From NCBI GenBank assembly GCA_020725625.1, contig DYET01000028.1:1-33409 (forward strand): a stretch of DNA of 33,409 nucleotides. The letters are read 5' to 3'. The first letter of the stretch is position 1, and each line of letters opens with the position of its first letter. Below, piece by piece: positions 4,328 to 31,947 of the stretch. The notes beneath the pieces are model-generated. The model saw only the letters and a program-made list of their open reading frames with translations, was not told where the DNA came from and searched no databases. Origin of the DNA: Desulfovirgula sp. GTDB lineage: Bacteria > Bacillota > Desulfotomaculia > Desulfotomaculales > Desulfocucumaceae. The translations under genes and the position numbers were made by a program.

Positions 4328-5035
4328 ATGGCTAAAAGGATTTTAATAGCATGTTCTTTGCTTGTGGTATTTTTTTCAATTGGTGTGGTTATTTTTGAGG
4401 AAGTCAGTAACGGAAGATTTATTTGGCACGGCATATTCAAGGATAGCAGGGAATTGGCCGACTGGCTGAAGTCCTTCGGGACGTGGGCCGTTATAATCAG
4501 CATTGTGGTTATGATTATCCAGACCATCGCCACGCCGGTCCCACTTTTCCTGGTGGCCGGTGCGAACGGATTTATTTTCGGCGCTGCCTGGGGCATACTG
4601 ATCACCCTGGTGGGCGCCCTGCTGGGGGCAACGGTGGCTTTTTACCTGGCCAGGGTGATAGCCCGGGATTACTTTTCGAAACGACTCGCCAAGTACATGC
4701 CCCAGGTGGACGAAATGAGCAAAAAAACGGGTGTCAAGGTTATATTCCTGGCCCGGCTGGTCCCCGTTCTTCCCTCCAGCATCGTCAGCTATGCTGCCGG
4801 TCTCAGCAAGGTCAGCTTCGGCGGCTTCTTTGTGGCCAGCGTGTTTGGGAAACTCCCCGAGATAATTATATACACCATTCTCGGCCACAGCCTGGAGAGA
4901 GCCGAGGGTTTGTTCACCAAAGTCACGCTGGTGATTATCGTAATCAGCCTGCTCTGCTTTTCACTGCAGTCAAAGAAGGTGTCATCCCTTTTTAATAAAA
5001 AATTTAACCAGGACAAAAAGGACACCGACCAGTAG
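4328..5035 (+). CDS. TVP38/TMEM64-family membrane protein
   Basis: This is a 235-residue polytopic membrane protein. The start ATG follows CCGGAGG with a 5-nt spacer. Hydrophobic segments lie at about 5-23, 53-75, 80-110, 137-160, 165-187 and 197-214. The conserved core is visible: G81-F-I-F-G with the glycine-rich GALLGATVAFYLAR at about 96-109, and FLARLVPVLPS followed by AAGLS at about 140-160. These features mark the SNARE-associated/VTT domain (DedA superfamily). Relatives act as lipid scramblases or ion-coupled transporters at the cytoplasmic membrane. The exact substrate is unknown. The Lys-rich tail is cytoplasmic. It converges on a second member of the superfamily, the DedA gene at 5122-5739. 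Confidence 0.85.
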   Translation: MAKRILIACSLLVVFFSIGVVIFEEVSNGRFIWHGIFKDSRELADWLKSFGTWAVIISIVVMIIQTIATPVPLFLVAGANGFIFGAAWGILITLVGALLGATVAFYLARVIARDYFSKRLAKYMPQVDEMSKKTGVKVIFLARLVPVLPSSIVSYAAGLSKVSFGGFFVASVFGKLPEIIIYTILGHSLERAEGLFTKVTLVIIVISLLCFSLQSKKVSSLFNKKFNQDKKDTDQ

Positions 5036-5121: not shown

Positions 5122-5739
5122 TTATACTCTCCTTTTGTGCCTGTACCAGAGGTAAAGAACTGCGCCCAGAATTACGGCCGCCACCAGCGCATCGGCCCGG
5201 TGGAACCAGACCTTCAAATCCTCCCAGTGTTCCCCCAGCTTGAGTCCGAGGTAGGTGAGAAAAAAACACCAGGGAAGCGACCCGAGAAAGGTGTAAACGA
5301 CGAAGCGGGGAAAATTCATCCTTGATATCCCGGCCGGAAGCGAAATGAAGGTCCTGATTATGGGCATCAGCCGGGTAAAAAAGACCGTGGCCTCCCCGTA
5401 CCGGTAAAACCAGTAGTCGGCCATGGCCAGCCTTTTCTCGGAGATTCCGATGTACCTTCCGTAGCGCAACAGGAAAGGCCGGCCCCCCCGGAGGCCGATC
5501 AGGTACGAGAGGATCGAACCCGCCGTTCCGCCGGCAGTTCCGGCCATGGCCGTCCAGAAAAAATTCAGTTTGCCCGTGGAAACCAGGTAACCTCCAAAAG
5601 GCAGGATTACTTCGCTTGGCAGGGGTATGTTGCAGCTCTCTATAGCCATGCCGATGGCCACTCCCCAGTAACCCAGGGCGGCGATTTTGGAAGTAACGGC
5701 CTTTAAGATTGGTTCCATCAGTTCAAATATAAAATCCAA
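5122..5739 (-). CDS. DedA-family membrane protein
   Basis: This is a 205-residue protein with a TTG start at 5739 preceded by GGAGGAAAATCA. It has the DedA/VTT core: E34 in a re-entrant segment followed by PLPSEVILPFGGYL (about 39-52), then GLRGGRPF (82-89), and FTRLMPIIRTFISLPAG (121-137) with the conserved Arg and Pro residues. Five or six hydrophobic helices are visible, and a basic tail ends the protein. Members of the family support undecaprenyl-phosphate or phospholipid flipping and membrane homeostasis. UPP recycling would fit the large glycan locus downstream, but nothing here proves it. It is downstream of, and on the same strand as, the multidomain protein at 5833-7257, 93 bp away. 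Confidence 0.88.
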   Translation of the reverse strand: MDFIFELMEPILKAVTSKIAALGYWGVAIGMAIESCNIPLPSEVILPFGGYLVSTGKLNFFWTAMAGTAGGTAGSILSYLIGLRGGRPFLLRYGRYIGISEKRLAMADYWFYRYGEATVFFTRLMPIIRTFISLPAGISRMNFPRFVVYTFLGSLPWCFFLTYLGLKLGEHWEDLKVWFHRADALVAAVILGAVLYLWYRHKRRV

Positions 5740-5832: not shown

Positions 5833-7257
5833 TTAGTTCCCAATGGGCGATTTGACCGAGGTATACCTGCGGTCGAAAACAACCAGGTCAAGGCTTTTGC
5901 ATATGGAACGGTATTTTTCCGAGAGACTGGAGGGGCTCACCCCGTATTCGTCGGCCACCTTATGCTGCGGGACGTTTCCGTTGAACTCCAGCCGGGCGAG
6001 GGTGTACACTACTGCGGCCAGCCACAGTTTTTCCTTCCGGACGCCGGGATTCTCCCTGTCGCAGTAATCCGACCAGAGCTTCAGGGCACCCTCTATTTGA
6101 ATCGGTGAGTAGTTTTTTGCCTTCAGGTCTTTTTTAATCATCAGGGCAACTTCCGCCTGGGCACGGGTGGCCCACTTATAGCCCGGCCTTGCCGGGGCCG
6201 CCGGCGGAGACTGAATTTCACCGGGGACGGCGTGGTCCCGGTTCCCGGGGATAAGGCCAAGCCTTGTACGGACCTTGTTGATGTCGTAGTAGGGCTCCCC
6301 CTTTTTAATCCTGATCATTTCAACTATTTCCAACTCTTTTAAAAGGTCCTCGACTTTCGCCCGGCCTTCAACGGTTTTGCACGACTCCCGGGGTGTTTTG
6401 CCGTCGAGGGCCTGAACCGGCCGGTTAATCCATTTTTCATAGTAGTCGTCGAGAAACAGGTCGGTAATCCGCTGGGCGATCAGGGAAGACATGGAATGAG
6501 CCGGCCGGCACTGGCTTTGTCCGGCGGGGTCCGGCGGGTTGAGGGCAAAATCCAGCATCCAGGCGTTGATTTTATGGGCCCGGTCTCTTAAATATCTGTC
6601 CAGGGAAAATGATTTCCGCCGGCTCCGGGCGGCATACCTGTCCAGGTCGGCCTTTATTTTCATGATCAGCGGCTTTCCGCAGTCCGGCGGCAGGGCCAGG
6701 CCCCCCGTGGAGAATTCGTGTTCGTTTCCCACCCGGAGAACCCTCATGAAAATCACCGAACCCTTTTCCAGTTTTCCGCTCACGGCGTAGTTGTTCACGG
6801 TAAACTTGCGGCTTAAGATCAGGTCCCGGATCCTGAGGCCCTTCTGGCCGGAAATAGCGCAAACTTCGAATACCGACATCCTTGAGCCCGACCAGTCCCC
6901 GATCAGTTTTTTCTCCATGGCCGAGATGTTCGATACAGACGAATAGATATCAATCAGCGTTTCCCCGTCTTCCATGACATAATCAAAAATGAACCACTCA
7001 AAACACCGTTCCATAAGTATTTCGTCATTTTCATCCACCAGGTGGGGGTTGATGTCGGCAAGGTACAATTGCCGGGCCCTGGCCATCTCGTCCGAGAAAA
7101 CCGGGTCGGCCGCGAATTCGCCCAGCTTCTGGCGCAGGATCCGGCCGGCCTTCCTCCACCTGTACTGATCCAGGAAAAGCACCTTGGCGGGCCGGTTGCA
7201 CTTTTTCCTGCCTCCGCCCCGGCAGCCGCCGGCCTCATTGCCGTTCCCGTGCCCCAT
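5833..7257 (-). CDS. Multidomain protein: MbcA/ParS-like segment and TFIIB/cyclin-like C-terminus
   Basis: This is a 474-residue protein with ATG preceded by GGGAGGTGG. The Gly-rich N-terminus with C12 and C20 may be a degenerate SEC-C-type metal motif. Residues 84-190 hold a region met in SEC-C proteins: FEWFIFDY, a GETLIDIY strand, then SVFEV and a GSVIFMRVLRVG beta segment. Residues 272-310 look like the toxin-binding MbcA/ParS/Xre antitoxin domain (WINRPVQALDGKTPRESCKT, then EGR and an LLKELE helix). Residues 365-455 are helical and end in a cyclin-fold/TFIIB-like helix-turn-helix (WLAAVVYTLARLEF, VPQHKVADEYGVSPSSLSEKYR). There is no signal peptide or TM. A cytosolic nucleic-acid-binding or regulatory role is inferred. 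It lies 66 bp downstream of the S41 peptidase gene on the same strand. The extreme C-terminus may be frameshifted. Confidence 0.7.
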   Translation of the reverse strand: MGHGNGNEAGGCRGGGRKKCNRPAKVLFLDQYRWRKAGRILRQKLGEFAADPVFSDEMARARQLYLADINPHLVDENDEILMERCFEWFIFDYVMEDGETLIDIYSSVSNISAMEKKLIGDWSGSRMSVFEVCAISGQKGLRIRDLILSRKFTVNNYAVSGKLEKGSVIFMRVLRVGNEHEFSTGGLALPPDCGKPLIMKIKADLDRYAARSRRKSFSLDRYLRDRAHKINAWMLDFALNPPDPAGQSQCRPAHSMSSLIAQRITDLFLDDYYEKWINRPVQALDGKTPRESCKTVEGRAKVEDLLKELEIVEMIRIKKGEPYYDINKVRTRLGLIPGNRDHAVPGEIQSPPAAPARPGYKWATRAQAEVALMIKKDLKAKNYSPIQIEGALKLWSDYCDRENPGVRKEKLWLAAVVYTLARLEFNGNVPQHKVADEYGVSPSSLSEKYRSICKSLDLVVFDRRYTSVKSPIGN

Positions 7258-7323: not shown

Positions 7324-8808
7324 TCAGCCCTTGATCACGATCCGGTCATCGTGCTGTTTGACGGCGTGGCCCAGCTGTTCGATCAATTCCAGTGAAATAT
7401 ATGAAATGCCGTCCTCTATGATTACACTGCCCCCGGCTTTTATTTCCCTGCCGTTGAGAAACGGGTATCCTTCCACCGGCATAAAAATCTTTACATCCCG
7501 CTTCCGGGCCGAAATGCCGGCGGAGTCCTGTTCCCAGGCAACCACGTAGCCCAGGGCTTCCAGGGTGAAACGCAGGGGCAGGTACACGCCCCTTTCATTG
7601 ATCAGGGGTGCGCTCGTGGCGGTTATTCTGTTTCCGTCAACGGCAACCTCTTTTTTGCCGGAGGTGAACACTATCTCCTTCGGCCCGGACTCAAGTATTC
7701 CCAGGGCGAAGGGAAGCTGCAGGCTCCTGATGTGCACCTCGTAGTCCGGCTTCAATCCCTGGTTGTGAACCTTTGTTCCTTTCGGCGTGGTGTATTCGGC
7801 GGTGGTTAGTTTCAAGGCGCCCCCCGTGTCAAGGCGGATCAGGCTTTGGGCGGTTCCCTTGCCGAAACTCCTTTCACCCACCAGGGTGGCGATTCCATTG
7901 TCCCTAAGGGCCCCCACCATTATCTCGGACGAACTGGCGCTCTGGGAGTTAATCAGCGCCACCACCGGGACCTTGACCCTTTTTACTTCCTTGCCGGCCA
8001 GGTGGGTGTTCACCGAACCGTCGTAATACCTGGTGATTACTATCGGTGCTTCCGGGTCGAGGAATATTTCGACCATTTCCAGGGCAGCATCCATGTACCC
8101 CCCGGGATTGTCCCTGAGGTCGATAACCAATCCGCCTATATGCTGTGACATCAGTGTGTCCAGGTGCTCCCTGAACAGTCCGGGGGTATTTACCCCGAAT
8201 GTTTTGACGGCTATGTAACCGGTGTTTTTGCCGACAACCTTTGACTCGATGGTGGGAATATCGAGGTGGGCCCGTTTCAGCTTGATGCTGATCTCCTTTC
8301 CTCCCCGGTCGATGACCAGGACCACCTCGGTCCCTGCCGGTCCTTTGATTTTTTCCACTGCCGCGGGGAGGGACCACCCTTTGATGTCGGTCCCGTCCAC
8401 CTTTATTATCTTGTCGCCGACCTGTAAACCCGCTTTCATGGCCGGGGATCCGGAAAAGACTTCCTGCACCCTCGGGTAGTCCGGCCGGGCCTCAAGGTAT
8501 ACCCCGATGCCTCCGTAAACCCCGCCCAGGTTCTCGGCCAACTTCTCCAGTTCGTCCTCGCTGAGGTACTCTGTGTAAGGGTCGTTTAAGGTGTCGATCA
8601 TGCCCCGGACGGCGCCCTTCAGCAACTGGTCCGCCTTCGGCTGGCTGATGTGGGCCCGGTGCAGGTACTCGAATACCTCTAGAATGGCCTTCTTGGCGTT
8701 GGCGGCATTTCCGGAGGCATACACCGGGCTGGGGCCGGCTAAGAAAAACAGGCAAAAATAAAAAAGAAAGATACACCCGAGGACTGCCGGTAACACTTTC
8801 CTGGCCAT
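7324..8808 (-). CDS. S41 carboxy-terminal processing peptidase with PDZ and stalk domain
   Basis: This is a 494-residue exported serine peptidase. The signal peptide or anchor spans about 5-31 (cleavage-like VYASG). The PDZ domain is at about 95-180 (GGIGVYLE; GLQVGDKIIKVDGTDI). The S41 catalytic core is at about 190-360, with the GYIAVKTF strand and the DLRDNPGG turn at 230-237. The nucleophile is expected at S292 in NSQSASSSE, with general-base K317 in SFGKGTAQ. The 25-residue spacing matches CtpA/Tsp. Residues about 385-494 match the copper-amine-oxidase N-terminal-like stalk module (PLINERGVYLPLRFTLEALGY), common in clostridial exported proteins. The role is cleavage of C-termini of envelope or sporulation proteins outside the membrane. 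The ribosome binding site is mediocre (AGGGGG). It is transcribed divergently from polA. Confidence 0.92.
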   Translation of the reverse strand: MARKVLPAVLGCIFLFYFCLFFLAGPSPVYASGNAANAKKAILEVFEYLHRAHISQPKADQLLKGAVRGMIDTLNDPYTEYLSEDELEKLAENLGGVYGGIGVYLEARPDYPRVQEVFSGSPAMKAGLQVGDKIIKVDGTDIKGWSLPAAVEKIKGPAGTEVVLVIDRGGKEISIKLKRAHLDIPTIESKVVGKNTGYIAVKTFGVNTPGLFREHLDTLMSQHIGGLVIDLRDNPGGYMDAALEMVEIFLDPEAPIVITRYYDGSVNTHLAGKEVKRVKVPVVALINSQSASSSEIMVGALRDNGIATLVGERSFGKGTAQSLIRLDTGGALKLTTAEYTTPKGTKVHNQGLKPDYEVHIRSLQLPFALGILESGPKEIVFTSGKKEVAVDGNRITATSAPLINERGVYLPLRFTLEALGYVVAWEQDSAGISARKRDVKIFMPVEGYPFLNGREIKAGGSVIIEDGISYISLELIEQLGHAVKQHDDRIVIKG

Positions 8809-8940
8809 TTTCCCATTCCCCCTGGTTTATGATTCGGCCCCGGCGCCTTTTTTCCTGCCGCGAAAAATGGGGGCCGGAAACATCTCTTTGGAAGGCGGCA
8901 GGTATTTTCAACACTTCCGGTGAAAAATAATTTCATAAAA

Positions 8941-9016
8941 GAATACAGGAGACAGAATTCAGGAGTCAGAATTCTGAGTTCTGAGTTCTGAGTTCTGAGT
9001 TCTGAATTCTGAATTC
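8941..9016. repeat. 7-bp tandem repeat array upstream of polA
   Basis: Six perfect 7-bp units lie end to end from 8975 to 9016: four TGAGTTC and two TGAATTC. They are preceded at 8941-8974 by related degenerate units (CAGGAGACAGAATTCAGGAGTCAGAATTC-like). The array ends 26 bp before the polA start codon. The piece 8941-8955 recurs in inverted orientation at 5089-5103. Confidence 0.85.
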
Positions 9017-9042
9017 CGGCTTCTTAAGGCAGGTGTTTGTAA

Positions 9043-11697
9043 TTGGACTCCCGGTCCTTTCTGATTATAGACGGTAACAGCCTGGTCCACCGGGCTTTTC
9101 ACGCCATCCCCCTCCTCTCCACCAGCCAGGGGGTAATCACCAACGCCGTTTACGGCTTCGCCGCAATGCTTCTGAAAATCCTTGAGGAGAAAAAGCCCGA
9201 AATGGTGGCTGTTTGCTTTGACAAGGGGAAAATAACCTTCCGCCATGACGAACTGGAGACCTATAAGGGGACCCGCAAGGCCACCCCCGACGAATTGCGG
9301 CCCCAGTTTCCCCTGGTCAAGGAAATGCTTTCGGCCATGGGCATACCGGTGCTGGAAATGGAGGGTTACGAGGCCGACGACTTGATCGGAACCATGATTA
9401 CCATGGCCGAAAAGGAAAAAATTAACAGTTTAATTGTCACCGGGGACAGGGACGCCCTTCAGCTGGTTTCCCCTTTGACCACCGTATTGCTGACCAAGAA
9501 AGGTATTACCGAGCTTGAGGAATACGACGAGGGAAAGGTCTGGGAAAGGTACGGCCTGACGCCGGATCAGCTGGTCGACTTGAAGGGACTGACCGGGGAC
9601 GTCTCGGACAACATCCCGGGGGTTCCAGGGATCGGCGAGAAAACGGGAGTCAAGCTGATCGCAGAATTCGGCAGCCTTGAAAACCTTATGAACAACCTGG
9701 ACCGGGTCAGCCCCAGGCTGGCCGGCAAGATAAGGGAGTTTGCCGACCAGGCCAGGCTCTCCCGGAAGCTTGCCGCCATCGAGAGGAACGTTCCCCTTGA
9801 TTTTAACCCTGAACGGTGCCGGTGGGAGGGGCCGGATTATAATCTCCTCCTGCCGCTCTTCGGCAGGCTGGAATTCAGGAGCCTGATCAAGGCCATTACC
9901 CGGATGGCCGGGGACAATTCCGGAAAGGGCGGACAGGACCGGAAGGGGGGAGAGAAGGTCCGAGCCGGCCGAGAACCCTCCCTGAAAACCTACCGGGTGG
10001 GTTATGTAATATTAGAAGGGAAAGAGGAATTCGAGGCCCTGCAGAAAAAAGTGGCAGGCGCCCGGATCGGCCTGGCCCTGGAGGGAAACCGCAGGGAGGG
10101 GCTGGTTGCCGCGGCCGTAAGTCTTGCCGACGGGGACAACTTTTATTTCCCGGTCACATCCGCCGCTGCCCAGAAGTTTATAGCAGCCGCCGCGGGCGAC
10201 CCCCGCCTGGAAAAGGTATGCCACGACGCAAAATCGGACATGTGGGTTCTGGCCGGAAACGGGATCAGGATGGAAGGGCTGGCCTTCGACGTGATGATTG
10301 CCGCCTACCTGTTGAACCCCGGCGCCCAGAACCGCAACCTGGATGACCTGGCCCTGGAGCACCTGGGCGTGGTGCTTCCGGCCGGCGGGCCGCAGGGCCT
10401 GTGCGCCCGGGCCGACGCCGCCAGGAGGCTGGCCCCGGTGATGGGGGATAAGCTAAGGCTGGCCGGGATGGAAAGGCTCTATTACGAGGTGGAAAACCCG
10501 CTGGTGGAAATACTGGCCGAGATGGAGATGGCCGGGGTGAAGGTGGACGCCGGGATCCTGTCGGAAATGTCGGCCGAACTGGGCGGGAGGATAGAAGAAC
10601 TGGCCGAAATCATTTACCGGCTGGCCGGGGAAAAATTCAACATCAATTCCACCCGCCAGCTTGGGCGTATTCTTTTTGAAAGGCTGCAGCTCCCGGTGAT
10701 AAAGAAAACCAAAACGGGATATTCTACTGACGCGGAAGTGCTGGAGGAACTGGCCGACACCCACGAAATCATAAACCACGTCATTCTCCACCGCCAGCTG
10801 ATGAAACTCAAGACCACGTACGTCGACGGGCTTTCGTCCCTGATCGACCCGTCCACGGGACTGGTGCACACCACCTTCCACCAGAACATAACAGCCACCG
10901 GGAGGCTTTCCAGCGCCGAGCCGAACCTGCAGAACATACCCATCAGGCTGGAGGAGGGAAGAAGAATAAGGAAGGTCTTCACGCCGCGCCGGGACGGCAA
11001 TGTCATCCTAACAGCCGACTATTCCCAGATCGAGCTGAGGGTGCTGGCCCACCTGGCCGGGGATCCGGTGCTGCTGGAGGCATTCAGGGAAAATCAGGAC
11101 ATCCACACCAGGACGGCTTCGGAGGTATTCGGGGTGGCCGTCAGCGAGGTCACCGCCGACCTGCGGGGCAGGGCGAAGGCGGTTAATTTCGGAATTATAT
11201 ACGGTATCAGCGAATTCGGGCTGGCCAGGGATATAAAGGTGACGCGCCATGAAGCCGGGCGCTACATTAAAAACTACTTTGAAAGGTACAGGGGCGCCAA
11301 GGCCTTTATCGACAGAACCATTTCCGAGGCCAAGGAGAAGGGTTACGTAACCACCATCCTGAACCGCCGCCGCTACCTGCCCGACCTTTTCAGCCCGAAC
11401 AAGGTGATTAGAAATTTCGGCGAGCGGGCTGCCATAAACACGCCCATCCAGGGGAGCGCCGCGGACATAATTAAGCTGGCCATGGTTAAAATATGGAAAG
11501 AGCTAAAGAAGCGCAGGCTGGAGACCAAAATGGTTCTCCAGGTTCACGACGAGCTTATATTCGACGTGCCGGGGCGGGAGCTTGAGGAAGTGAGGGAACT
11601 TGTCAGGGACTGCATGGAAAATGCCGTCCGGCTGGACGTACCCCTGGTGGTGGAGATGAAGGCGGGACCGAACTGGTATGATGTGAACAAGATATGA
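9043..11697 (+). CDS. polA: DNA polymerase I
   Basis: This is an 884-residue protein starting at TTG 9043 after AAGGCAGGTG. The N-terminal 5'-nuclease domain spans about 1-290 (LIIDGNSLVHRAF, YEADDLIGT, TGDRDALQL, a GDVSDNIPGVPGIGEKTG helix-hairpin-helix). The 3'-5' exonuclease-like domain spans about 315-480. It is degenerate: the first Asp of motif I is missing (GLALEGN instead of a DTE-type site), although HDAKSD remains. Proofreading is therefore probably lost, as in many Firmicutes. The polymerase domain spans about 490-884: motif A with D659 (ADYSQIELR), motif B R710-Y720 (RAKAVNFGIIYG), motif C H835-D836-E837. It acts in Okazaki-fragment maturation and excision repair. mutM follows after 52 bp, so they are probably co-transcribed. 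Confidence 0.97.
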   Translation: MDSRSFLIIDGNSLVHRAFHAIPLLSTSQGVITNAVYGFAAMLLKILEEKKPEMVAVCFDKGKITFRHDELETYKGTRKATPDELRPQFPLVKEMLSAMGIPVLEMEGYEADDLIGTMITMAEKEKINSLIVTGDRDALQLVSPLTTVLLTKKGITELEEYDEGKVWERYGLTPDQLVDLKGLTGDVSDNIPGVPGIGEKTGVKLIAEFGSLENLMNNLDRVSPRLAGKIREFADQARLSRKLAAIERNVPLDFNPERCRWEGPDYNLLLPLFGRLEFRSLIKAITRMAGDNSGKGGQDRKGGEKVRAGREPSLKTYRVGYVILEGKEEFEALQKKVAGARIGLALEGNRREGLVAAAVSLADGDNFYFPVTSAAAQKFIAAAAGDPRLEKVCHDAKSDMWVLAGNGIRMEGLAFDVMIAAYLLNPGAQNRNLDDLALEHLGVVLPAGGPQGLCARADAARRLAPVMGDKLRLAGMERLYYEVENPLVEILAEMEMAGVKVDAGILSEMSAELGGRIEELAEIIYRLAGEKFNINSTRQLGRILFERLQLPVIKKTKTGYSTDAEVLEELADTHEIINHVILHRQLMKLKTTYVDGLSSLIDPSTGLVHTTFHQNITATGRLSSAEPNLQNIPIRLEEGRRIRKVFTPRRDGNVILTADYSQIELRVLAHLAGDPVLLEAFRENQDIHTRTASEVFGVAVSEVTADLRGRAKAVNFGIIYGISEFGLARDIKVTRHEAGRYIKNYFERYRGAKAFIDRTISEAKEKGYVTTILNRRRYLPDLFSPNKVIRNFGERAAINTPIQGSAADIIKLAMVKIWKELKKRRLETKMVLQVHDELIFDVPGRELEEVRELVRDCMENAVRLDVPLVVEMKAGPNWYDVNKI

Positions 11698-15769: not shown

Positions 15770-16447
15770 TTGGGAAGACACAGGAGCAGGTCGAAAATCA
15801 AGCTGTCATCGCCCGGGACCGTCCTGGCGGCATCCCTTTGCCTAGTTGTGGTCACCGTGGGGCTGGTGCTGTGGTTCTTGAACCTGGGCCCCCGGTTTCC
15901 GGAAATTTCCTACGTGCCGGACCGGGGGTGGGCCGACCCGGGCGGGGAAATCGCAAAGGGGCCGCCGGCGGTTGCCCGGCCCGGAGTTCAGGATGCCCCA
16001 ATGTCCGGGGCTCAGGACGGCCTCCGGACGGCGGGCCGGCCCGGATTGTCCGGGGAGGCCGGCGTTTCGACGGCCCAATTGAGCAAAGAGGAGAAACTGG
16101 CCGCCATAGGGCAAAAATACGAGTTCCTTTTAAAGAATCTCAAAAGCTGCTATGAAGCGGAGCTGAACCGCCTGATCCAGCATGCCAGGAACGACTACCA
16201 GGCTGCCGGCAGGGGTGAGAAAGACATTTCCCTGTCCAGGCTGGCCGTCGAGTACTACCGGGCCGGGCGGGCCCTGGAAAAGGAATGCGACCGGAGGTTC
16301 GACGGGCTCCTGGAGAATATGAAAAAGGAGCTGAAGATGCACGGCCTGCCCCTGGACCTGGCCCACCAGGCGGAAAAGGAGTACATCGATCAAAAAAACA
16401 GGGCCAGAAAGGAAATTTTGGTGAAGATAGCGAGGCACGGAGGATGA
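15770..16447 (+). CDS. Single-TM membrane protein with coiled-coil, unknown
   Basis: This is a 225-residue protein. I choose TTG 15770 because GGAAGG stands nine bases before it. The upstream TTG at 15752 would place that site inside the gene. A basic N-terminus (RHRSRSKIK) precedes one TM helix (about 17-38), giving an N-in, C-out topology. A Pro/Gly-rich linker (about 40-105) follows, then a highly charged helical region from about 105 to the end (EEKLAAIGQKYEFLL; KKELKMHGLPLDLAHQAEKEY). No known domain was recognised. It lies between the SLH gene (57 bp) and the CpsB-type gene (ATGA overlap), so it is probably translated with the phosphatase and acts at the envelope. Confidence 0.75.
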   Translation: MGRHRSRSKIKLSSPGTVLAASLCLVVVTVGLVLWFLNLGPRFPEISYVPDRGWADPGGEIAKGPPAVARPGVQDAPMSGAQDGLRTAGRPGLSGEAGVSTAQLSKEEKLAAIGQKYEFLLKNLKSCYEAELNRLIQHARNDYQAAGRGEKDISLSRLAVEYYRAGRALEKECDRRFDGLLENMKKELKMHGLPLDLAHQAEKEYIDQKNRARKEILVKIARHGG

Positions 16448-17244
16448 TCGACCTTCATGCGCACATCCTCCCGGCCCTGGACGACGGACCCCCGGACCTG
16501 GAGGAGGCCGTGGCCATGGCGCGGATCGCCGTGGCCGAAGGAACCGGATCGCTGGTGGCCTCCCCCCACGTCGTCAGGGGCGCCTACGAAAACGACAGGG
16601 CAGGGATTCTCCAGGCCGTGGAGGACTTAAACGGGGAACTGGGAAGGCGCGGCATAAAACTGAAGGTGCATCCCGGCGCGGAGTACATGCTGGACCCGGA
16701 TCTCCCCCGGTGGCTGGGGGAGGGCCGGGCCCTTACCATAAACGACAGCGGTAAATACCTGCTGGTCGAATTTCCCTCGGCCGGCATACCGCCCTATTCC
16801 GCTCAGACGCTCTATGAAATCGCCCTCCAGGGCGTTATCCCGGTTATTGCCCACCCCGAGCGCAACTTCGATTTAATCCGCGATCCGGATCTATTGGCCC
16901 GGTTTTTGGAAAGGGGAGCCGTCTGCCAGGTTACGGCGGGCAGCCTCACCGGCCTTTTCGGCCGGCGTATACAGCAGGTGGGCTGGTATTACCTGAACCG
17001 GGGAATGTGCCATCTTATCGGCAGCGACGCCCACTCCCCGGGATACAGGGCCCCGGTCCTGTCCGGGGCAGCAGGCGCCGTGTCAAAGGCCCTTGGCGGT
17101 GAACTGTCGGAACTCTTAACCAGCGGCAATCCCGGCCGGATCTTGAACGGAATGTCCGTCCTGCGGCCGGCGGGGGCAGAAACTTTGACGATGTATCCGG
17201 GAAAGGGATTCTTCTCCAGGATATTCAGAAGAAGGGAAAAGTAG
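16444..17244 (+). CDS. CpsB/YwqE-type PHP-fold tyrosine phosphatase
   Basis: This is a 266-residue metal-dependent protein-tyrosine phosphatase of the CpsB/CapC/YwqE family (PHP fold). Its ATG overlaps the stop of the previous gene. Metal ligands are visible: H5 and H7 in DLHAHILPALDDG, H42 in SPHV, E80 in HPGAEY, H137 in AHPERN, D195 and H197 in GSDAHS. It should remove phosphate from the Tyr cluster of the BY-kinase encoded at 18705-19436, resetting the Wzz/kinase cycle that sets polysaccharide length and export. The family is usually about 240-260 residues, so it is full length. Confidence 0.93.
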   Translation: MIDLHAHILPALDDGPPDLEEAVAMARIAVAEGTGSLVASPHVVRGAYENDRAGILQAVEDLNGELGRRGIKLKVHPGAEYMLDPDLPRWLGEGRALTINDSGKYLLVEFPSAGIPPYSAQTLYEIALQGVIPVIAHPERNFDLIRDPDLLARFLERGAVCQVTAGSLTGLFGRRIQQVGWYYLNRGMCHLIGSDAHSPGYRAPVLSGAAGAVSKALGGELSELLTSGNPGRILNGMSVLRPAGAETLTMYPGKGFFSRIFRRREK

Positions 17245-17368
17245 CTTGATGACTGATTTCAACAAATTTCTCGGCCGAGGAAGGAATTGCCGCCGATATG
17301 TTGAAGTAAATAAACTGGTTTCCTTAAATTGGACCTGCGTGTAATTTATGACTTTTGGGGGAATTGCA

Positions 17369-18679
17369 GTGGCGGACCAGGAACTGATGTCTTCGGACGA
17401 GATAGATTTAAGGCACATATTCAGGGTCCTCAGCAAGTGGAAGAAGGTCATCGCCCTTATTACCCTGGCTTCGGTCCTGACCAGCGTGGTGTTAAGCTTT
17501 TTTGTCCTGGAACCGGTTTACGAGTCCAAGGCGATGCTGCTGGTGACCAGGACCTCGGACAAGGAGCGCGTGGTGACCACCGGCGACAACCTGGAATCGC
17601 TGATCAGCACCATTTCCCGGATACCGCAGCTCACCATGAACACTTACGTCAACCAGCTCAAGAGCGAGATACTGCTGCAGAGGGTGGCGGACAGGCTTTC
17701 CCTTGACCCGAAGGCGTACAACCCGGCGGTCCTCTCCAGTATTACCACGGCCACGGCGCTGAAGGACAGCAACCTGATCGATCTGAAGGTCAGGCACAAC
17801 GACCCCGTAATGGCCGCCAGGATCGCCAACACCATTTCCGAGCAGTACCTGGAGCTGATCTCCGAGAAAAACCAGGCCCAGATGACCAAGTCGGTGGGCT
17901 TTTTGGAAACCCAGCGGGAAAAGGTCGAAAAGGAACTGGACGAGGTGTTGGAAAAACTTAAAGAGTTCGAGTCCAGGCCCGGCGGGGTGGCCTTCCTGGA
18001 GCAGCAGTTCAACACCAGGAACCAGGACCTTTCCAGGTACCAGTCCATGCTTAACGAGACGCTGGTGGATCTGAGGCAGGCCCAGGCCGGGGCGCGGCGA
18101 CTGGAGGAAGAGCTGAGCAAAACCCCGAAGACCATCCCGGTAAAAAAGGTCAGGGAAGGAAGCTCCCCGGAATACATTACCGAGGAGGCAAACCCGGTAT
18201 ACGCAAGCCTGTCCCAGGAGTACGCGGCCAAAACCACCAGGATATCCGAGGCCATGGCCAGGATAGAGGTCATGGAGTCGATTATAGGACAGGTCCGGCA
18301 GGAGGTGGACCAGATCCAGAAGGCCCTGGTGGAAAGAAAGGCCGAGCGGGAGAAGCTGGAGGCCCATAAGGCCCGCCTGGTGAACGCCCGCAACCTGCTG
18401 GCGGAAAAGGTCACCCAGACGCAGATCGCCAAGTCCATCGATCTGGGAGAAACGTCCATAGTGGTGGTGTCGCCCGCCATGATACCCTCTGGCCCCATAA
18501 AGCCCAACAAGCAGCTGAACATGGCCGTCGCCTTCGTGCTTGGCCTGATGATGGCGGTGTTTACGGCCTTTCTGATGGAGTACCTGGACAATACGGTAAA
18601 GAATCCCCGGGACGTAACCGACAAGCTGAAAGTTCCCTTCCTGGGTTCGATCCCGCAGGTTGCGGTAAAGCGGCAGTAA
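17369..18679 (+). CDS. Wzz/GumC-type chain-length determinant protein
   Basis: This is a 436-residue protein. I prefer GTG 17369, which has GGGGGA upstream. The ATG at 17348 has no ribosome binding site. TM1 spans about 27-47 and TM2 about 397-417, enclosing a large extracytoplasmic helical domain with long coiled coils (about 165-390). The Pro-rich segment before TM2 (SPAMIPSGPIKPNK) is the Wzz signature. The short cytoplasmic tail (DVTDKLKVPFLGSIPQV) resembles the part that contacts the BY-kinase. The role is a polysaccharide co-polymerase that fixes chain length in the Wzx/Wzy pathway. It pairs with the separately encoded kinase 25 bp downstream, as in Gram-positive CpsC/CpsD. Confidence 0.92.
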   Translation: MADQELMSSDEIDLRHIFRVLSKWKKVIALITLASVLTSVVLSFFVLEPVYESKAMLLVTRTSDKERVVTTGDNLESLISTISRIPQLTMNTYVNQLKSEILLQRVADRLSLDPKAYNPAVLSSITTATALKDSNLIDLKVRHNDPVMAARIANTISEQYLELISEKNQAQMTKSVGFLETQREKVEKELDEVLEKLKEFESRPGGVAFLEQQFNTRNQDLSRYQSMLNETLVDLRQAQAGARRLEEELSKTPKTIPVKKVREGSSPEYITEEANPVYASLSQEYAAKTTRISEAMARIEVMESIIGQVRQEVDQIQKALVERKAEREKLEAHKARLVNARNLLAEKVTQTQIAKSIDLGETSIVVVSPAMIPSGPIKPNKQLNMAVAFVLGLMMAVFTAFLMEYLDNTVKNPRDVTDKLKVPFLGSIPQVAVKRQ

Positions 18680-18704
18680 AGCAAGGTTGGCCAGAGGTGC
18701 GAGG

Positions 18705-19436
18705 ATGTTCAATTTTTTCAAGTCGCCGAAAATTAAAAAAATGGGCCGTATCGAGAATGGATCCGGCTACCTGTACGCCCTGAAAGACCCGAAATCGCCC
18801 GCGGTGGAAGCCTTCCGCACACTGAGGACCAATATAGGCTTTGCTTCGGTGGACAGGCCGGTGAAGCTGATCCTGGTCACCAGCCCCACCCCGGAGGACG
18901 GCAAGTCCACGGTGGTGGCCAACCTCGGCATGGTCATGGCCCAGGCGGGGAACAACGTGCTGATAGTGGACGCCGACCTGCGCAAGCCCACCCAGCACCA
19001 CATATTCGAGGTAATCAACAACAGGGGCCTGGTAAACATCATGGTCCAGGGAGAGGAGCTTTCGGGAGTGGTGCGCCCCGGGCCCGTAGAAGGTATAAGC
19101 CTGGTTACCAGCGGCCCCATTCCGCCGAATCCCTCGGAGCTGTTCGCATCCGGTAAAATGGCGGAGTTCCTGTCCGCACTGAGGGAAAAGTACGATGTTG
19201 TGCTGATTGACTCTCCGCCGGTGGTTGCGGTTACCGACCCGGTTCTCCTGGCGGCCCGGGTGGACGGGGTGATCCTGGTGGTCAAGGCCGGCGTCACCAG
19301 GATCGACATTATTAACAGCGCCCTGGAACAGCTTAAAAAGGCCAACGAGAGGTTCCTGGGGGTGGTTTTGAACCAGGTCAGGGCAACCGGCGGGGGGTAC
19401 AATTACTACTATTACTACGGAAAAACCGAAAAATAA
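18705..19436 (+). CDS. BY-kinase (CpsD/CapB-type tyrosine autokinase)
   Basis: This is a 243-residue protein starting with ATG after AGAGGTGCGAGG. The P-loop kinase motifs are: Walker A SPTPEDGKST (60-69), Walker A' VLIVDADLRKP (85-95), and Walker B VVLIDSPP (165-172). The N-terminal AFRTLRTNI is the oligomerisation helix that reaches the neighbouring subunit. The C-terminal tyrosine cluster is plain (YNYYYYY, 232-238) and is the autophosphorylation site. With the Wzz-like partner it forms the CpsCD-type complex, and the CpsB-type protein would dephosphorylate it. A 150-bp gap to the next gene may hold a second promoter or regulatory leader. Confidence 0.95.
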   Translation: MFNFFKSPKIKKMGRIENGSGYLYALKDPKSPAVEAFRTLRTNIGFASVDRPVKLILVTSPTPEDGKSTVVANLGMVMAQAGNNVLIVDADLRKPTQHHIFEVINNRGLVNIMVQGEELSGVVRPGPVEGISLVTSGPIPPNPSELFASGKMAEFLSALREKYDVVLIDSPPVVAVTDPVLLAARVDGVILVVKAGVTRIDIINSALEQLKKANERFLGVVLNQVRATGGGYNYYYYYGKTEK

Positions 19437-19542
19437 ATTACTGTTGTATTGTTGAAATTTATGTCATAATATTCATTTTAACCCTAAATATGTCAATATA
19501 TGTCCGAAATTAATTATGTTAAATTTTGGACACACCGGGAGG

Positions 19543-19575
19543 AATGCTTATTTTATTGTAGAAAATAATAGCATT
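19543..19575 (+). promoter_or_regulatory. Hairpin and five-codon open frame in the leader of the dehydratase gene
   Basis: AATGCT-TATTTT pairs with AAAATA-(AT)-AGCATT around a 7-nt loop. Directly upstream, GGGAGG (19537-19542) precedes ATG (19544) and a five-codon frame ending TAG (19559-19561) inside the hairpin. The structure ends 11 bp before the ATG at 19587. It may modulate translation. There is no T run, so it is not a clear terminator. Confidence 0.35.
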
Positions 19576-19586
19576 GGGAACTAAAG

Positions 19587-21530
19587 ATGTTAATTATTCA
19601 CACTGGTCTCAGATTTTACCTCAGGGGCCTTTTGTGTCAGAAGGTCGGGTGTGGTTCCGTGGGGTTCCGCTTAAGGGTGGTTTTGCTTGTACTGATTGAC
19701 GCCCTTCTTGTCAACGTCGCTTTTGCCGTGGCGTTTTCCCTGCGCTTTTTTGAAGCGGGCATACCGGTAAAGCATTACCTGTCCTCTGTCAGCCTGCTGT
19801 TGCTGGCCACCTTCATGCATTTGGCCGCTTTTTACATCTTGAAACTATATCACCGGGTGTGGTCCTATGCCAGCACCGGCGAACTGCTGGCGGTGATATA
19901 CGCGGTTTCCGCCGGTGCCCTGGGGACTGTCGGGGCATCGTTCTTTTTGCGGGTTCCCCTGCCCAGGAGCGTCATAATTATGGCCTGGGCCTTCACCATC
20001 ATGCTGGTGGGCGGGTCCCGCTTCGCCTGGCGCCTGTACGTCCAGGGAAAGAAGAATCACAGCAGCCGGAGGCCCGCCCGCAGGGCGCTGATAGTCGGGG
20101 CCGGGGATGCCGGCGCCATGGTGGCCAGGGAGCTGACGGGCAATGATAGGGTCAATTTAAAGCCGGTGGGCTTCGTGGACGACGATCCGGGAAAAAGAAA
20201 CATGACCCTCCTGGGCATACCCGTGCTGGGCAGGAGGGAGGACATCCCGGGGATCGTGAGGCGGCGTCGCGTGGACGAGATCATTATCGCCATGCCCTCG
20301 GTAAACGGCCGGGCCCTCAAGGACATAGTGGAAATATGCCGGAACACGGAGGCCGAACTGAAGATACTGCCGGGCATGTACGAAATAATCGGGGGCCGGG
20401 TGTCCATAAACAGGATCAGGCCGGTCCGGGTGGAGGACCTCCTGCGCCGGGAGCCGGTGAAGGTGGACCTGGCGGCCATCGCCTCCTACCTGGAAGGCAA
20501 AGTGGTCCTGGTGACCGGGGCCGGGGGGTCCATCGGGTCCGAGCTGTGCAGGCAGGCGGCCGCCTTCGGTCCAGGCCGCCTGGTTCTCCTGGGGCACGGC
20601 GAAAACAGCATCCACAAGGTGTGGCAGGAGCTGGAAGATTCCTTCCCGGCGCTGGATGTGGCGGTGGAAATAGCCGACGTCAGGGACTTCCCCCGGATGG
20701 AGTACATATTCAACCGGCACCGCCCGGCGGTGGTCTTCCACGCCGCCGCCCACAAGCACGTGCCGCTGATGGAGATGCACCCCGGCGAGGCAGTCAAAAC
20801 CAACGTCCTGGGCACCCGCAACGCGGCCGAGGCGGCGCACCGGGCCGGTGCCGGCGTGTTCATCCTGATTTCCACGGACAAGGCGGTCAACCCGTCCAGC
20901 GTCATGGGGGCCACCAAGCGGCTGGCCGAGCTGGTGGTCCGCCGGTACAGCAGCCGCAGCAACACCGTCTTCACCGCCGTCCGCTTCGGCAACGTGCTGG
21001 GCAGCAACGGCAGCGTGGTGCCCGTGTTCGAGCAGCAGATTCGCAGGGGCGGCCCGGTGAAGATCACCCACCCCGAGATGAAGCGCTACTTCATGACCAT
21101 ACCGGAGGCGGTGAGCCTGGTCATCCAGGCCGGGTCCATGGCCGGGGGCGGCGAGGTGTTCGTGCTGGACATGGGCGAGCCGGTGAGGATACTGGACCTG
21201 GCCCGGGACATGATCCGCCTCTCGGGCTACGAGCCGGGGAAGGACATAGAAATCGTCTTCACCGGCATCCGCCCGGGAGAAAAGCTGTTTGAAGAACTCC
21301 TCACGGCCGAGGAGGGGTCCACGGCCACCCGCCACAAGAAGATCTTCATCGCCCGCCCGGGCCTGGTGGACGCCACCGCCCTGGAGAAGGAGCTGGCCGC
21401 CCTGGAAAAACTGCCCCCGGAGGCGGACGGCGAGAGGATCATGCAGGCCCTGAGAAGGGTCATTCCGGGGTTCACCCCAGGCCAGCAGCAGGCGGGGATC
21501 CCCAGGCCCGGAACGGCCGCCGGGGCGTGA
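19587..21530 (+). CDS. Membrane sugar-nucleotide 4,6-dehydratase (WbpM/PglF/CapD type)
   Basis: This is a 647-residue protein. Four TM helices lie at about 30-150, followed by a first Rossmann-like domain (ALIVGAGDAGA, 167-177) and a catalytic SDR domain from about 305. That domain has TGAGGSIGSE (310-319) for NAD(P) and STDKAVNPSSVMGATKR (429-445), with the M440-xxx-K444 pair that replaces the usual YxxxK in UDP-GlcNAc 4,6-dehydratases of this group. It converts UDP-GlcNAc into a 4-keto-6-deoxy sugar, the first step to QuiNAc, FucNAc or bacillosamine-type residues. The ATG at 19587 has only GGGA nearby. A GTG at 19659 is an alternative start. No dedicated reductase or C4-aminotransferase for the 4-keto product is obvious here. 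Confidence 0.93.
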   Translation: MLIIHTGLRFYLRGLLCQKVGCGSVGFRLRVVLLVLIDALLVNVAFAVAFSLRFFEAGIPVKHYLSSVSLLLLATFMHLAAFYILKLYHRVWSYASTGELLAVIYAVSAGALGTVGASFFLRVPLPRSVIIMAWAFTIMLVGGSRFAWRLYVQGKKNHSSRRPARRALIVGAGDAGAMVARELTGNDRVNLKPVGFVDDDPGKRNMTLLGIPVLGRREDIPGIVRRRRVDEIIIAMPSVNGRALKDIVEICRNTEAELKILPGMYEIIGGRVSINRIRPVRVEDLLRREPVKVDLAAIASYLEGKVVLVTGAGGSIGSELCRQAAAFGPGRLVLLGHGENSIHKVWQELEDSFPALDVAVEIADVRDFPRMEYIFNRHRPAVVFHAAAHKHVPLMEMHPGEAVKTNVLGTRNAAEAAHRAGAGVFILISTDKAVNPSSVMGATKRLAELVVRRYSSRSNTVFTAVRFGNVLGSNGSVVPVFEQQIRRGGPVKITHPEMKRYFMTIPEAVSLVIQAGSMAGGGEVFVLDMGEPVRILDLARDMIRLSGYEPGKDIEIVFTGIRPGEKLFEELLTAEEGSTATRHKKIFIARPGLVDATALEKELAALEKLPPEADGERIMQALRRVIPGFTPGQQQAGIPRPGTAAGA

Positions 21531-21539
21531 GGAGGAGAT

Positions 21540-22895
21540 ATGATGCCGGTTGCCCATGTAATAAACGGGAATAATGCCCACGCCTGCCAGTTAATGCATA
21601 AGATTAAGACCCGCCAGGCTGCAGTTGCGGTTGTCGGGCTCGGTTATGTCGGCCTTCCTCTGGCGGTGGAAAAAGCAAAAATCGGATTCCAAGTGCTTGG
21701 CATAGATCAGAACCCGAGGCGGGCCTATAAGGTTAACGCCGGCCGGAATTACATCCTGGATGTCAAAGAGGAAGAACTCCGTGAACTGGTCCGGGCGGGC
21801 AAAATACGCGCCTATACCGGATTTGAACGCCTGCCGGAGGCGGATGTAATCGTCATCTGCGTTCCTACTCCGCTGGATAAGAACCGGGACCCCGACATAT
21901 CGTACATAAAAAATGTGACCAACGAGATAGCAATCCGCCTGCGCCCGGGCCAGCTGGTGACCCTGGAAAGCACTACCTACCCCGGCACGACCCAGGAAGT
22001 GATCCTGCCCAGGCTTGAAGAAACCGGGCTCAGGGCAGGCAGGGATTTTTTCCTGGCGTATTCCCCAGAGAGGGTGGACCCCGGCAACAAGCGGTTTACC
22101 ACCCAGAACACCTCCAGGGTCGTGGGAGGGATTACTCCGGAATGCCTGGAGGTGGCGTATACCTTTTATGCCCAAACGATAAAGCAGGTCGTGCCCGTTT
22201 CTTCGCCGGCGGTGGCCGAGCTGACGAAGGTGTTTGAAAATACGTACCGCGCCGTAAATATCGCCCTGGTCAATGAGCTCATGCTCCTTTGCGACAAAAT
22301 GGGCCTGGACGTTTGGGAAGTGGTGGAGGCGGCCGGAACCAAGCCCTTCGGCATCCAGACCTTCTACCCCGGGCCCGGCGTGGGCGGGCACTGCATTCCC
22401 ATCGACCCCTTCTACCTCACCTGGAAGGCGCGGGAGTACGATTTCCACACCCGCTTCATCGAGCTGGCCGGAGAAATCAACATCCAGGTTTCCTATTACG
22501 TGGTGGACAAGGTTATCCAGGCTTTAAACAGGCAGAAAAAGGCCCTCAACGGGTCCCTCATCCTGGTGCTGGGCGTGGCTTATAAAAAAGATGTCGCCGA
22601 CGTCCGGGAGTCGCCGGCGGTGCGGATTATTCCCCAACTGGTGGCCAGGGGCGCGGTGGTGGTCTACCATGACCCGTATATTGCCGAAATAGAGCCGAAG
22701 GAATGCCGGGATTTCTCAGCGGGAAGCGTAAGCCTTACCGAAGAGGTTGTCAGGCAGGCAGACTGCGTATTGATCCTGACCGACCATTCCTGCATTGACT
22801 ATGAATGGGTGGTTCACAACGCAAAACTGGTGGTCGACACCAGGAATGCCACCAAGTCCGTCAAAATATTCAGGGATAAGATAGTAAAAATATAA
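21540..22895 (+). CDS. wbpA: UDP-N-acetylglucosamine 6-dehydrogenase (WbpA)
   Basis: This is a 451-residue NAD-dependent UDP-sugar 6-dehydrogenase. It starts at ATG 21540 or the adjoining ATG 21543, after GAGGAGGAG. Features: VVGLGYVGLPLA (31-42) for NAD, CVPTPLDKNRDPD, ESTTYPGTT, YSPERVDPGN, and the catalytic Cys C285 in GPGVGGHCIPIDP. The C-terminal UDP-binding domain has VLGVAYKKDVADVRESP. The motifs fit the WbpA/TviB/WbpO branch acting on UDP-HexNAc rather than plain UDP-glucose dehydrogenase. It makes UDP-GlcNAcA, the first intermediate of UDP-ManNAc3NAcA. It is followed by wbpB, wbpD and wbpE in the order known from Pseudomonas. Confidence 0.93.
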   Translation: MMPVAHVINGNNAHACQLMHKIKTRQAAVAVVGLGYVGLPLAVEKAKIGFQVLGIDQNPRRAYKVNAGRNYILDVKEEELRELVRAGKIRAYTGFERLPEADVIVICVPTPLDKNRDPDISYIKNVTNEIAIRLRPGQLVTLESTTYPGTTQEVILPRLEETGLRAGRDFFLAYSPERVDPGNKRFTTQNTSRVVGGITPECLEVAYTFYAQTIKQVVPVSSPAVAELTKVFENTYRAVNIALVNELMLLCDKMGLDVWEVVEAAGTKPFGIQTFYPGPGVGGHCIPIDPFYLTWKAREYDFHTRFIELAGEINIQVSYYVVDKVIQALNRQKKALNGSLILVLGVAYKKDVADVRESPAVRIIPQLVARGAVVVYHDPYIAEIEPKECRDFSAGSVSLTEEVVRQADCVLILTDHSCIDYEWVVHNAKLVVDTRNATKSVKIFRDKIVKI

Positions 22896-22926
22896 TCTTT
22901 GCAGGCATGGAAAGGGTTTAATCAGC

Positions 22927-23874
22927 ATGGGTGTTGCAGTGGTGGGAGCGGGAAACTGGGGGAGGAACCTGGTGCGGACCTTTCACCGGCTGGGTGAACT
23001 GGCCGGTGTGGCCGAGGTCGACCTGGAGTTGCGAAAAACCATACATTCACAGTACCCCGGTGTTTTCGTGTGGCGGGAATTTTCGGAACTCCTGGAGAGT
23101 GACGTTCCCGCCCTGGCCATTGCCACCCCGGCCCAGACCCACTACCAGTTGGCCCGGGAAGCCCTGCTGGCGGGAAAAGATGTGTTCGTGGAGAAGCCCA
23201 TGGCCCTTTCCCGGGCCGAGGCCGAAGAACTTCTAAAGTTGGCTACGTCTAAAAACCGCATCCTGATGGCCGGGCACCTGCTGCTGTACCAGCCGGCCAT
23301 CCGGTGGCTTAAAAATCATATTGCGTCCGGCGCCATCGGCGAAATGGCCTGCCTTTACCAGGAAAGACTTAAACTGGGGCGCGTGCGCTCCGCGGAGAAC
23401 GTCCTGTGGAGCTTCGGCGTCCACGATATCGCCGTGCTTCTCTATCTGGTAGGAGAAAAACCGCAGGAAGTCAACGCCGTAGGCCGGTGTTTCCTGCAAG
23501 AAGGAATTGAAGATGACGTCCATGTGCATCTCAAATTCAGCGGCGGCGTTCAGGCCCACTTGCATGTGTCGTGGCTTTGGCCGGAGCAGAGGCGCCGCCT
23601 GGCTATTGTCGGCTCTAAAGCCATGCTTACCTATGATGAACTGTCGCAGGAGGTCGTCCTGCATAAAAAGCGGATAACCCCGGAACTGCGAAATCGGGAT
23701 GAAGGCAGCAAGGTGGTTTTCCGGGGAAATGAAGAACCCCTTTTGCTGGAGTGCCGCCATTTCCTGGAATGTGTGGCGGGGCGCAAAGAGCCCTTGTCTT
23801 GCGGCCGGAGCGCCCTGGAGGTAATCGAGGTCCTGGAGAGGGCCGGAAAACAATTTAGGGAAGATAAAGTATGA
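22927..23874 (+). CDS. wbpB: UDP-GlcNAcA 3-dehydrogenase (WbpB/WlbA-like Gfo/Idh/MocA oxidoreductase)
   Basis: This is a 315-residue Gfo/Idh/MocA oxidoreductase. The Rossmann motif [10 protein letters not shown] is at 5-14 and EKP at 89-91 ([11 protein letters not shown]). The substrate-site helix contains [13 protein letters not shown], where the His-Asp pair is typical of the catalytic centre. Length and order after the 6-dehydrogenase support the 3-dehydrogenase that makes the 3-keto acid from UDP-GlcNAcA. In the known pathway its cofactor is reduced and then recycled with 2-oxoglutarate. It starts at ATG 22927, 31 bp after wbpA. The upstream site (GGAAAGGG) is moderate. Its stop overlaps the next start (ATGA). 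Confidence 0.9.
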
Positions 23875-25554: not shown

Positions 25555-25637
25555 ATAAGTTTTTTAAAAAGCTGGAATGCCTTCTACCCAAAGGACATTT
25601 TATCCGTAATGTAACCATACTAGGCGGAGGAACAGCC

Positions 25638-26834: not shown

Positions 26835-26851
26835 CTTGGAAAGTGGGATAA

Positions 26852-28108: not shown

Positions 28109-28195
28109 GGAAGCGGGCCCGCCGGCTTGTCATGGAAAACTATACTTGGAAGAAGAACGCCGAGAAGACCATTGAGGTTTACAAAGAGGTGTTGC

Positions 28196-29302: not shown

Positions 29303-29315
29303 GGAGTACGAGAGA

Positions 29316-31923: not shown

Positions 31924-31947
31924 GCAAGGTTATTCGGGAGATCGTTG

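What the first reader, a model, noticed from the sequence alone, without database searches (positions are those of the whole stretch)
5833..7257. Bacterial protein joining an MbcA/ParS-like segment to a TFIIB/cyclin-like C-terminus
One 474-residue protein carries a conserved N-terminal FEWFIFDY region, an antitoxin-type W-x-x-x-P, GKTPRE, EGR segment, and a C-terminal helical domain ending in a TFIIB-like HTH (VADEYGVSPSSLSEKYR). Cyclin-fold TFIIB-like modules are rare in bacteria. No partner toxin is adjacent. It could be a stand-alone regulator or RNA/ribosome-associated factor rather than an antitoxin.
Basis: partly seen in the sequence, partly recalled or inferred. Interest (0 to 1): 0.55.

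Follow-up and report, generated by a model that had tools for sequence, protein, structure and literature searches.

The report
Bacterial protein with TFIIB-like DNA-binding tail
A gene in a spore-former-type bacterium encodes a protein whose tail is predicted to fold like TFIIB, the transcription factor of archaea and eukaryotes, joined to a piece of a toxin-antitoxin protein but with no toxin nearby; it is most likely a stand-alone nucleic-acid-binding regulator whose function has not been tested.

Summary
The ORF is real, on the minus strand (7257 to 5833, 474 aa). Both unusual segments check out. The middle (residues 274-308) is an Xre/MbcA/ParS antitoxin C-terminal domain: above Pfam's cut-off, and its family profile finds the Xre antitoxin 6gw6 at E 1.4e-5. 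The tail (residues ~363-462) is predicted as a five-helix TFIIB/cyclin fold: Z 14.3, 1.9 A over 99 residues against Brf2, and its family profile finds archaeal TFB at E 7e-6, in both repeats. Added here: a SEC-C metal motif in relatives, worn down in this copy; an N-terminal domain with a predicted OB-like barrel; fixed chromosomal synteny fpg-polA / ctpA-X-dedA; clean absences of X at the same site; and no RES toxin in this genome (2 of 60 relatives). The gene is not a toxin-antitoxin unit. Best reading: a vertically inherited, dispensable nucleic-acid-binding regulator in an operon with a conserved sigma-H-like promoter; target unknown. The C-terminal domain is a bacterial branch of the TFIIB/cyclin superfamily, close to Pfam's DUF6398, for which no paper was found. 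Fold supported by prediction and profiles; function inferred.

The parts
5833..7257 (-). Gene X, 474 aa, ATG at 7257, stop at 5833-5835
7195..7227 (-). Worn SEC-C metal-binding motif (residues 11-21; two Cys left of the CxC...CC of relatives)
   Evidence: alignment A1; 49 of 93 family members keep a four-ligand motif, the window copy does not
6538..7185 (-). N-terminal domain (residues 25-240), no Pfam match
   Evidence: model pLDDT 93.5
6679..6897 (-). OB-like beta barrel inside the N domain (about residues 121-193)
   Evidence: weak matches, best Z 6.4, most of them OB folds (CusF, CspA, YB-1, SSB, RecO, IF5A)
6334..6438 (-). Xre/MbcA/ParS C-terminal (DUF2384) domain, residues 274-308
   Evidence: Pfam above cut-off; only PF09722 match in the genome; profile hits 6gw6 and 6d0h
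5872..6171 (-). TFIIB/cyclin-fold domain, residues 363-462
5893..5967 (-). Helix-turn-helix of the TFIIB-like domain, residues 431-455; S446 identical in 73 of 73 rows, R450 in 89%
7324..8808 (-). Upstream gene in the same direction: S41 C-terminal processing peptidase (ctpA-like), probably same operon
   Evidence: TIGR00225 above cut-off; conserved neighbour
5122..5739 (-). Downstream gene in the same direction: DedA/UptA-family membrane protein
9043..11697 (+). polA, divergent neighbour
   Evidence: sequence (name recalled); conserved neighbour in 53 of 53 named loci
8832..8856 (-). Conserved sigma-H-like promoter element (AGGA-N17-GAAT) ahead of the ctpA-X-dedA operon

Best explanation
Gene X encodes a chromosomal, vertically inherited, dispensable nucleic-acid-binding protein, most likely a DNA-binding transcription regulator. 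Its basic C-terminal TFIIB/cyclin-type HTH domain would read DNA. Its N-terminal domain carries an OB-like barrel that would bind nucleic acid or protein. Its ParS-type segment, for which no toxin partner is present, would be a protein-protein or dimerisation module. Shown by computation: ORF, domain composition, TFIIB-type fold prediction, synteny, clean absences, no RES toxin. Inferred: DNA as ligand, regulation as function, operon expression from a sigma-H-type promoter (so early stationary phase or sporulation). Its target site is not known.
For: TFIIB/cyclin fold of residues 363-462: Z 14.3, 1.9 A over 99 aa, and the 50 rows listed are TFIIB/Brf proteins and cyclins. Profile of 73 C domains hits archaeal TFB, E 7e-6, aligned in both TFB repeats; the Pfam TFIIB model hits 32 of 73 members at E <= 0.1, best 1.3e-5. 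The C domain is basic (median pI 9.3) while the N domain is acidic in the family (median 5.3), and the recognition helix is conserved (S446 100%, R450 89%). The C domain is the kept part: 90 of 93 members. It also occurs with SEC-C alone in a 179-aa Paenibacillus ORF. Same place next to polA in 53 of 53 named loci; the promoter-like element is in 37 of 41 X+ loci, and sigma-H itself is encoded.
Against: No DNA target was found: the conserved element in the polA/ctpA gap is also in 7 of 8 genomes without X, so it is not X's site. Only one cyclin repeat is present, whereas TFIIB/TFB have two. A cyclin fold can also be a pure protein-binding module. Foldseek's own best E-value is modest (2.4e-3) and Z about 14 is within what mostly helical models can reach by chance (note). 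The window protein's own N domain is basic (pI 8.8), unlike the family median. The sigma-H label rests on a recalled consensus, and the one control tried, the dacF-spoIIAA operon of the same genome, has no such element upstream. In the TFB alignment the position of the invariant Ser 446 is Arg (read), so the same DNA contacts cannot be assumed.
Confidence: 0.45

Rival explanations
1. RNA- or ribosome-associated factor: the OB-like barrel and the SEC-C metal motif bind RNA/ribosome (as SecA-like metal domains are linked to SecB and chaperone work), and the HTH domain contacts rRNA or protein.
For: OB-like barrel with cold-shock, IF5A, RsgA and eIF1A matches, all weak. SEC-C motif in 49 of 93 members. 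A review passage says E. coli YecA and YchJ carry SecA-like metal domains and that un-peer-reviewed work suggests YecA is a chaperone interacting with SecB (PMC8076867, passages).
Against: SEC-C is lost in the window copy and in 44 of 93 members in all while the HTH domain is kept. The N domain is acidic in the family. OB matches are below the level that separates real from common folds.
Confidence: 0.27
2. Protein-binding adaptor (cyclin-like) without nucleic-acid role, for example for RNA polymerase or for the CtpA/DedA envelope proteins of its operon.
For: Cyclins score nearly as well as TFIIB (Z about 12). Conserved operon with a peptidase and a membrane protein.
Against: The HTH recognition helix is among the best conserved parts and the domain is basic. 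In more distant relatives the neighbours differ (a RecD-type helicase beside L101, a 5'-nucleotidase-like gene beside L117, L118 and L121: names recalled from the sequences).
Confidence: 0.15
3. Antitoxin of a RES/Xre-type toxin-antitoxin system.
For: True ParS C-terminal domain.
Against: No RES in the genome and in 2 of 60 relatives only, on other contigs than X; fixed housekeeping synteny; the NCBIfam antitoxin model is far below its cut-off, 29 of 90 bits; gene absent cleanly in relatives without neighbours changing.
Confidence: 0.04

Closest known systems
TFIIB / archaeal TFB / Brf cyclin repeats (PF00382)
   Same: Five-helix cyclin fold with a terminal HTH; profile and structure match
   Different: One repeat, bacterial, no zinc ribbon or B-reader of TFIIB, fused to SEC-C/OB-like/ParS; no TBP in bacteria (recalled)
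Pfam DUF6398 (PF19935)
   Same: 49 of 73 C domains match at E <= 0.1; in three related genomes the family protein exceeds Pfam's cut-off (L125-L127)
   Different: The window protein itself is below the cut-off (14.4 of 27.2 bits); a DUF6398 protein in G005 carries another, unrelated-looking C-terminal region
Xre/MbcA/ParS antitoxins (PF09722, DUF2384; e.g. P. putida Xre 6gw6)
   Same: C-terminal toxin-binding domain sequence
   Different: No Xre-type N-terminal HTH, no RES partner; HTH of another fold, at the C-terminus
SEC-C/DUF2384 proteins with the same N domain on plasmids (Legionella antarctica P0001, Ruegeria P0002, Rossellomorea P0003)
   Same: N domain in all three (E 4.5e-22, 3e-12, 5e-9)
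   Different: Legionella and Ruegeria have ParS but no cyclin domain; Rossellomorea has the cyclin domain but no ParS

Membership tests
TFIIB/cyclin-fold superfamily (fold level) | five-helix cyclin box | tested here: met
   model helices 365-380, 385-402, 409-423, 431-438, 442-455; Z 14.3, 1.9 A over 99 aa; prediction, not a solved structure
TFIIB/cyclin-fold superfamily (fold level) | sequence-profile relation to TFIIB/TFB | tested here: met
   1ais_B/1d3u_B E 7e-6, both repeats; TFIIB model in 32 of 73 members at E <= 0.1, best 1.3e-5; not in the window member alone (part A)
TFIIB proper (general transcription factor) | two cyclin repeats plus N-terminal zinc ribbon and B-reader | tested here: not met
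   one repeat only in the protein; N-terminus is a SEC-C remnant
TFIIB proper (general transcription factor) | binds TBP-DNA and RNA polymerase | not testable with these tools
   needs biochemistry
Xre/MbcA/ParS antitoxin | PF09722 domain | tested here: met
   30.0 bits, cut-off 24.5
Xre/MbcA/ParS antitoxin | adjacent or genomic RES toxin | tested here: not met
   none in G000 (genome 97% complete); neighbours ctpA, dedA, polA
Xre/MbcA/ParS antitoxin | whole-protein antitoxin family model | tested here: not met
   NF049845 29.1 bits against 90
DUF6398 (PF19935) | score above Pfam cut-off | tested here: not met
   14.4 of 27.2 bits for the window protein; some relatives pass
SEC-C proteins (PF02810) | CxC...CC/H metal motif | tested here: not met
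   absent in the window copy, present in 49 of 93 family members
OB fold (N domain) | five-stranded OB barrel | tested here: inconclusive
   best Z 6.4, most rows OB folds; no Pfam match
DNA-binding regulator | specific DNA binding | not testable with these tools
   no site found

The most novel reading that the evidence does not exclude
Bacteria carry a family of basal-factor-like proteins in which a single TFIIB-type cyclin/HTH domain docks on promoter DNA (and perhaps RNA polymerase), next to an OB-like barrel and a retired antitoxin domain: a bacterial relative of TFB working beside sigma factors, and a possible link in the debated sigma/TFB kinship.
Probability: 0.1. Interest if true: 0.85.

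Novelty: new variant of a known kind. Interest (0 to 1): 0.52.

Why it matters
It gives a fold, and so a testable function, to a domain that databases list as unknown (DUF6398 and its unlisted relatives) or as plain HTH/SEC-C/antitoxin. It shows a ParS domain kept in a chromosomal gene with no toxin, and a TFIIB-type cyclin domain shared by many Bacillota. If the domain binds promoters, it bears on the origin of TFIIB/TFB and sigma factors.

Tried and rejected
Antitoxin of a RES system: rejected. Anti-phage defence: no PADLOC match for X or its ctpA neighbour. Autoregulation through the conserved polA/ctpA element: rejected because 7 of 8 genomes without X keep the element. Sigma-H identity of that element: tried one control, the region upstream of dacF-spoIIAA in the same genome; no element there, only a match inside dacF, so it stays 'sigma-H-like'. 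In the whole window the plain AGGA-N15..18-GAAT pattern is no more frequent than chance (6 seen, 4.7 expected); the case rests on its conserved place in 41 loci. The pattern was chosen after reading those 41 sequences; the 8 X-less regions were not used to choose it.

Fold of the N domain: no clear relative; all PDB matches weak; a search of viral models gave nothing useful. A family profile of the N domain against PDB sequences: one hit at E 0.91, dismissed. Search of phages with the C domain of L005: no match. Literature: no paper for DUF6398, none with SEC-C and DUF2384 together, none for cyclin fold + TFIIB + 'bacterial protein', none in two further searches for bacterial TFIIB-like proteins; three papers and five were seen as listings only and did not look relevant; one SEC-C + helix-turn-helix + ribosome paper and the other papers were seen as listings only. 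The library holds open-licence papers only, so this is not proof of absence.

Rows dropped: 8 of 61 named loci were left out of the synteny count for short flanks (L038, L059, L065, L069, L085, L087, L090, L091). 28 of 122 matching ORFs were identical duplicates. The promoter count uses the 41 of 54 loci (53 named plus the window) where polA and ctpA were each called once with a gap of 20-800 bases. For L145 polA was hidden by a false ORF, so 300 bases upstream of ctpA were used. X-less genomes: 19 of 60; 11 searched for ctpA, 8 regions fetched. The domain alignments A2 and A3 leave out near-identical and short rows: 72 of 87 and 77 of 92 rows kept; of 44 non-redundant ParS rows (from 56), 36 were aligned in A4.

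Full report
What is there. The ORF at 5833-7257 is on the minus strand, 474 aa. The window is contig C201 of an unnamed 3.1 Mb genome; named relatives that carry the gene are Peptococcaceae, Desulfotomaculum, Desulfofundulus, Pelotomaculum and similar. 41 of 60 related genomes have a match, mostly one ORF each, with several listed as two pieces of one ORF.

Anatomy. (1) SEC-C motif, CPCGSGKxYxxCC in relatives, worn to two cysteines here; 49 of 93 members keep four ligands. (2) N domain, residues 25-240, no Pfam match for the window protein and only weak scattered ones among 78 members (best E 0.014); AlphaFold2 model pLDDT 93.5: helices around a beta barrel whose matches, all weak (best Z 6.4), are mostly OB folds. 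(3) ParS/MbcA segment, residues 274-308, Pfam 30.0 bits against 24.5; the 37-row profile finds 6gw6 at E 1.4e-5 and 6d0h at 3.6e-3. It is strong in 52, weak in 13 and absent in 28 of 93 members. (4) C domain, residues 363-462, kept in 90 of 93; of the three exceptions one (L089) has its C domain in a second ORF.

The C domain is TFIIB-like. In the full-length model (pLDDT 81; C-domain blocks 79-95) the best Foldseek match is Brf2 at E 2.4e-3, probability 1.00. VIA-align gives Z 14.3, rmsd 1.9 A, 99 residues for Brf2 (5n9g), then TFIIB and archaeal TFB at 12.6-13.7, then cyclins at about 12. Helical models can reach such Z by chance, so the independent sequence test matters: a profile of 73 C domains finds archaeal TFB (1ais_B, 1d3u_B) at E 7e-6 with both TFB repeats aligned, and human TFIIB at 0.04-0.06 and weaker. 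Pfam's TFIIB model matches 32 of 73 members at E <= 0.1, best 1.3e-5; generic HTH models match too, and DUF6398 matches 49 of 73. The window member itself matches DUF6398 only below cut-off and the TFIIB Pfam model not at all at E 0.1 (part A).

Modularity. On plasmids, a Legionella antarctica SEC-C protein and a Ruegeria protein have the N domain and ParS but no C domain; a Rossellomorea SEC-C protein has N and C domains but no ParS; a 179-aa Paenibacillus ORF has SEC-C and the C domain only. So ParS and cyclin modules come and go on a SEC-C/N-domain base. Within 398 Bacillota genomes 106 have some match to the full profile, many of them to one end only.

Context. In 53 of 53 named loci with enough flank, polA lies on the far side of ctpA or directly next to X; ctpA precedes X in 46 of 53 and a dedA-type gene is in 47 of 53 (the printed cluster sizes count one locus more because the window was included). 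Gaps ctpA-X range from -14 to 127 bases over 45 loci, which suggests one operon. In 8 of 8 X-less regions examined the neighbours remain: 7 have ctpA next to dedA, the eighth (G004) ctpA next to a second DedA-type gene; one (G001) is of the same genus as the window. X is thus dispensable and was lost more than once, or gained at a fixed place.

Promoter. A conserved AGGA-N15..18-GAA[TAG] element points to ctpA in 37 of 41 X+ loci (1.8 expected in shuffles) and in 7 of 8 X-less loci (0.3 expected). It resembles a sigma-H promoter (consensus recalled). Sigma-H is encoded, SpoIIAA too, though just below its curated cut-off; but the region upstream of the spoIIAA operon lacks the element. Since X-less genomes keep it, it belongs to the operon and is not X's binding site.

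Not an antitoxin. No RES in the genome, the ParS domain of X is the only one found, RES is in 2 of 60 relatives, on other contigs. In P. putida, Xre's DUF2384 domain is described as interacting with the RES toxin (PMC12204516, passages); another paper regarded DUF2384 as an HTH fused to nucleases (PMC2848206, passage).

How it most likely works. A basic, conserved HTH in a cyclin fold, with an OB-like domain, points to nucleic-acid binding; DNA regulation is the likeliest (0.45), ribosome/RNA work next (0.27). No target was found and nothing was tested at the bench.

Damage in this copy. The tail shared by relatives (DPLLAxILxxLKL) lies after the stop in another frame, and SEC-C is worn. Intact copies exist in relatives. 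The core domains show no stop.

Noticed in passing
window 8809-9042: The polA/ctpA gap holds a second conserved block, ATTTCACC-N8-AAAATACCTGCC, which read on the other strand looks like a divergent promoter toward polA; it is seen in X-less genomes too.
   Followed up: partly
window 8809-9042: A short tandem run of CAGAACT/CAGAATT units sits in the same gap in the window strain; similar short repeats (ATTAGGA type) are in L072.
   Followed up: no
window 4328-5035: A second DedA/UptA-type gene, convergent with the operon's own dedA; it is found near X in the closest relatives.
   Followed up: partly
L117-L121 (e.g. L119:1504-3183): Distant relatives of about 560-585 aa carry an extra domain between the N domain and ParS; a 'VNSxxRAxxx'-like stretch also occurs at that place in the Legionella and Ruegeria plasmid proteins.
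   Followed up: no
L123:1462-2523: A 353-aa protein with DUF6398 at its N-terminus and a region that looks like a plasmid pRiA4b ORF-3 domain (recalled); the DUF6398 part is weakly related to the C domain of X (E 5.8e-5).
   Followed up: partly
window 16285-33186: A long run of capsule/exopolysaccharide-type genes (sugar transferases, chain-length regulator, tyrosine kinase, epimerases), judged from the sequences alone.
   Followed up: no
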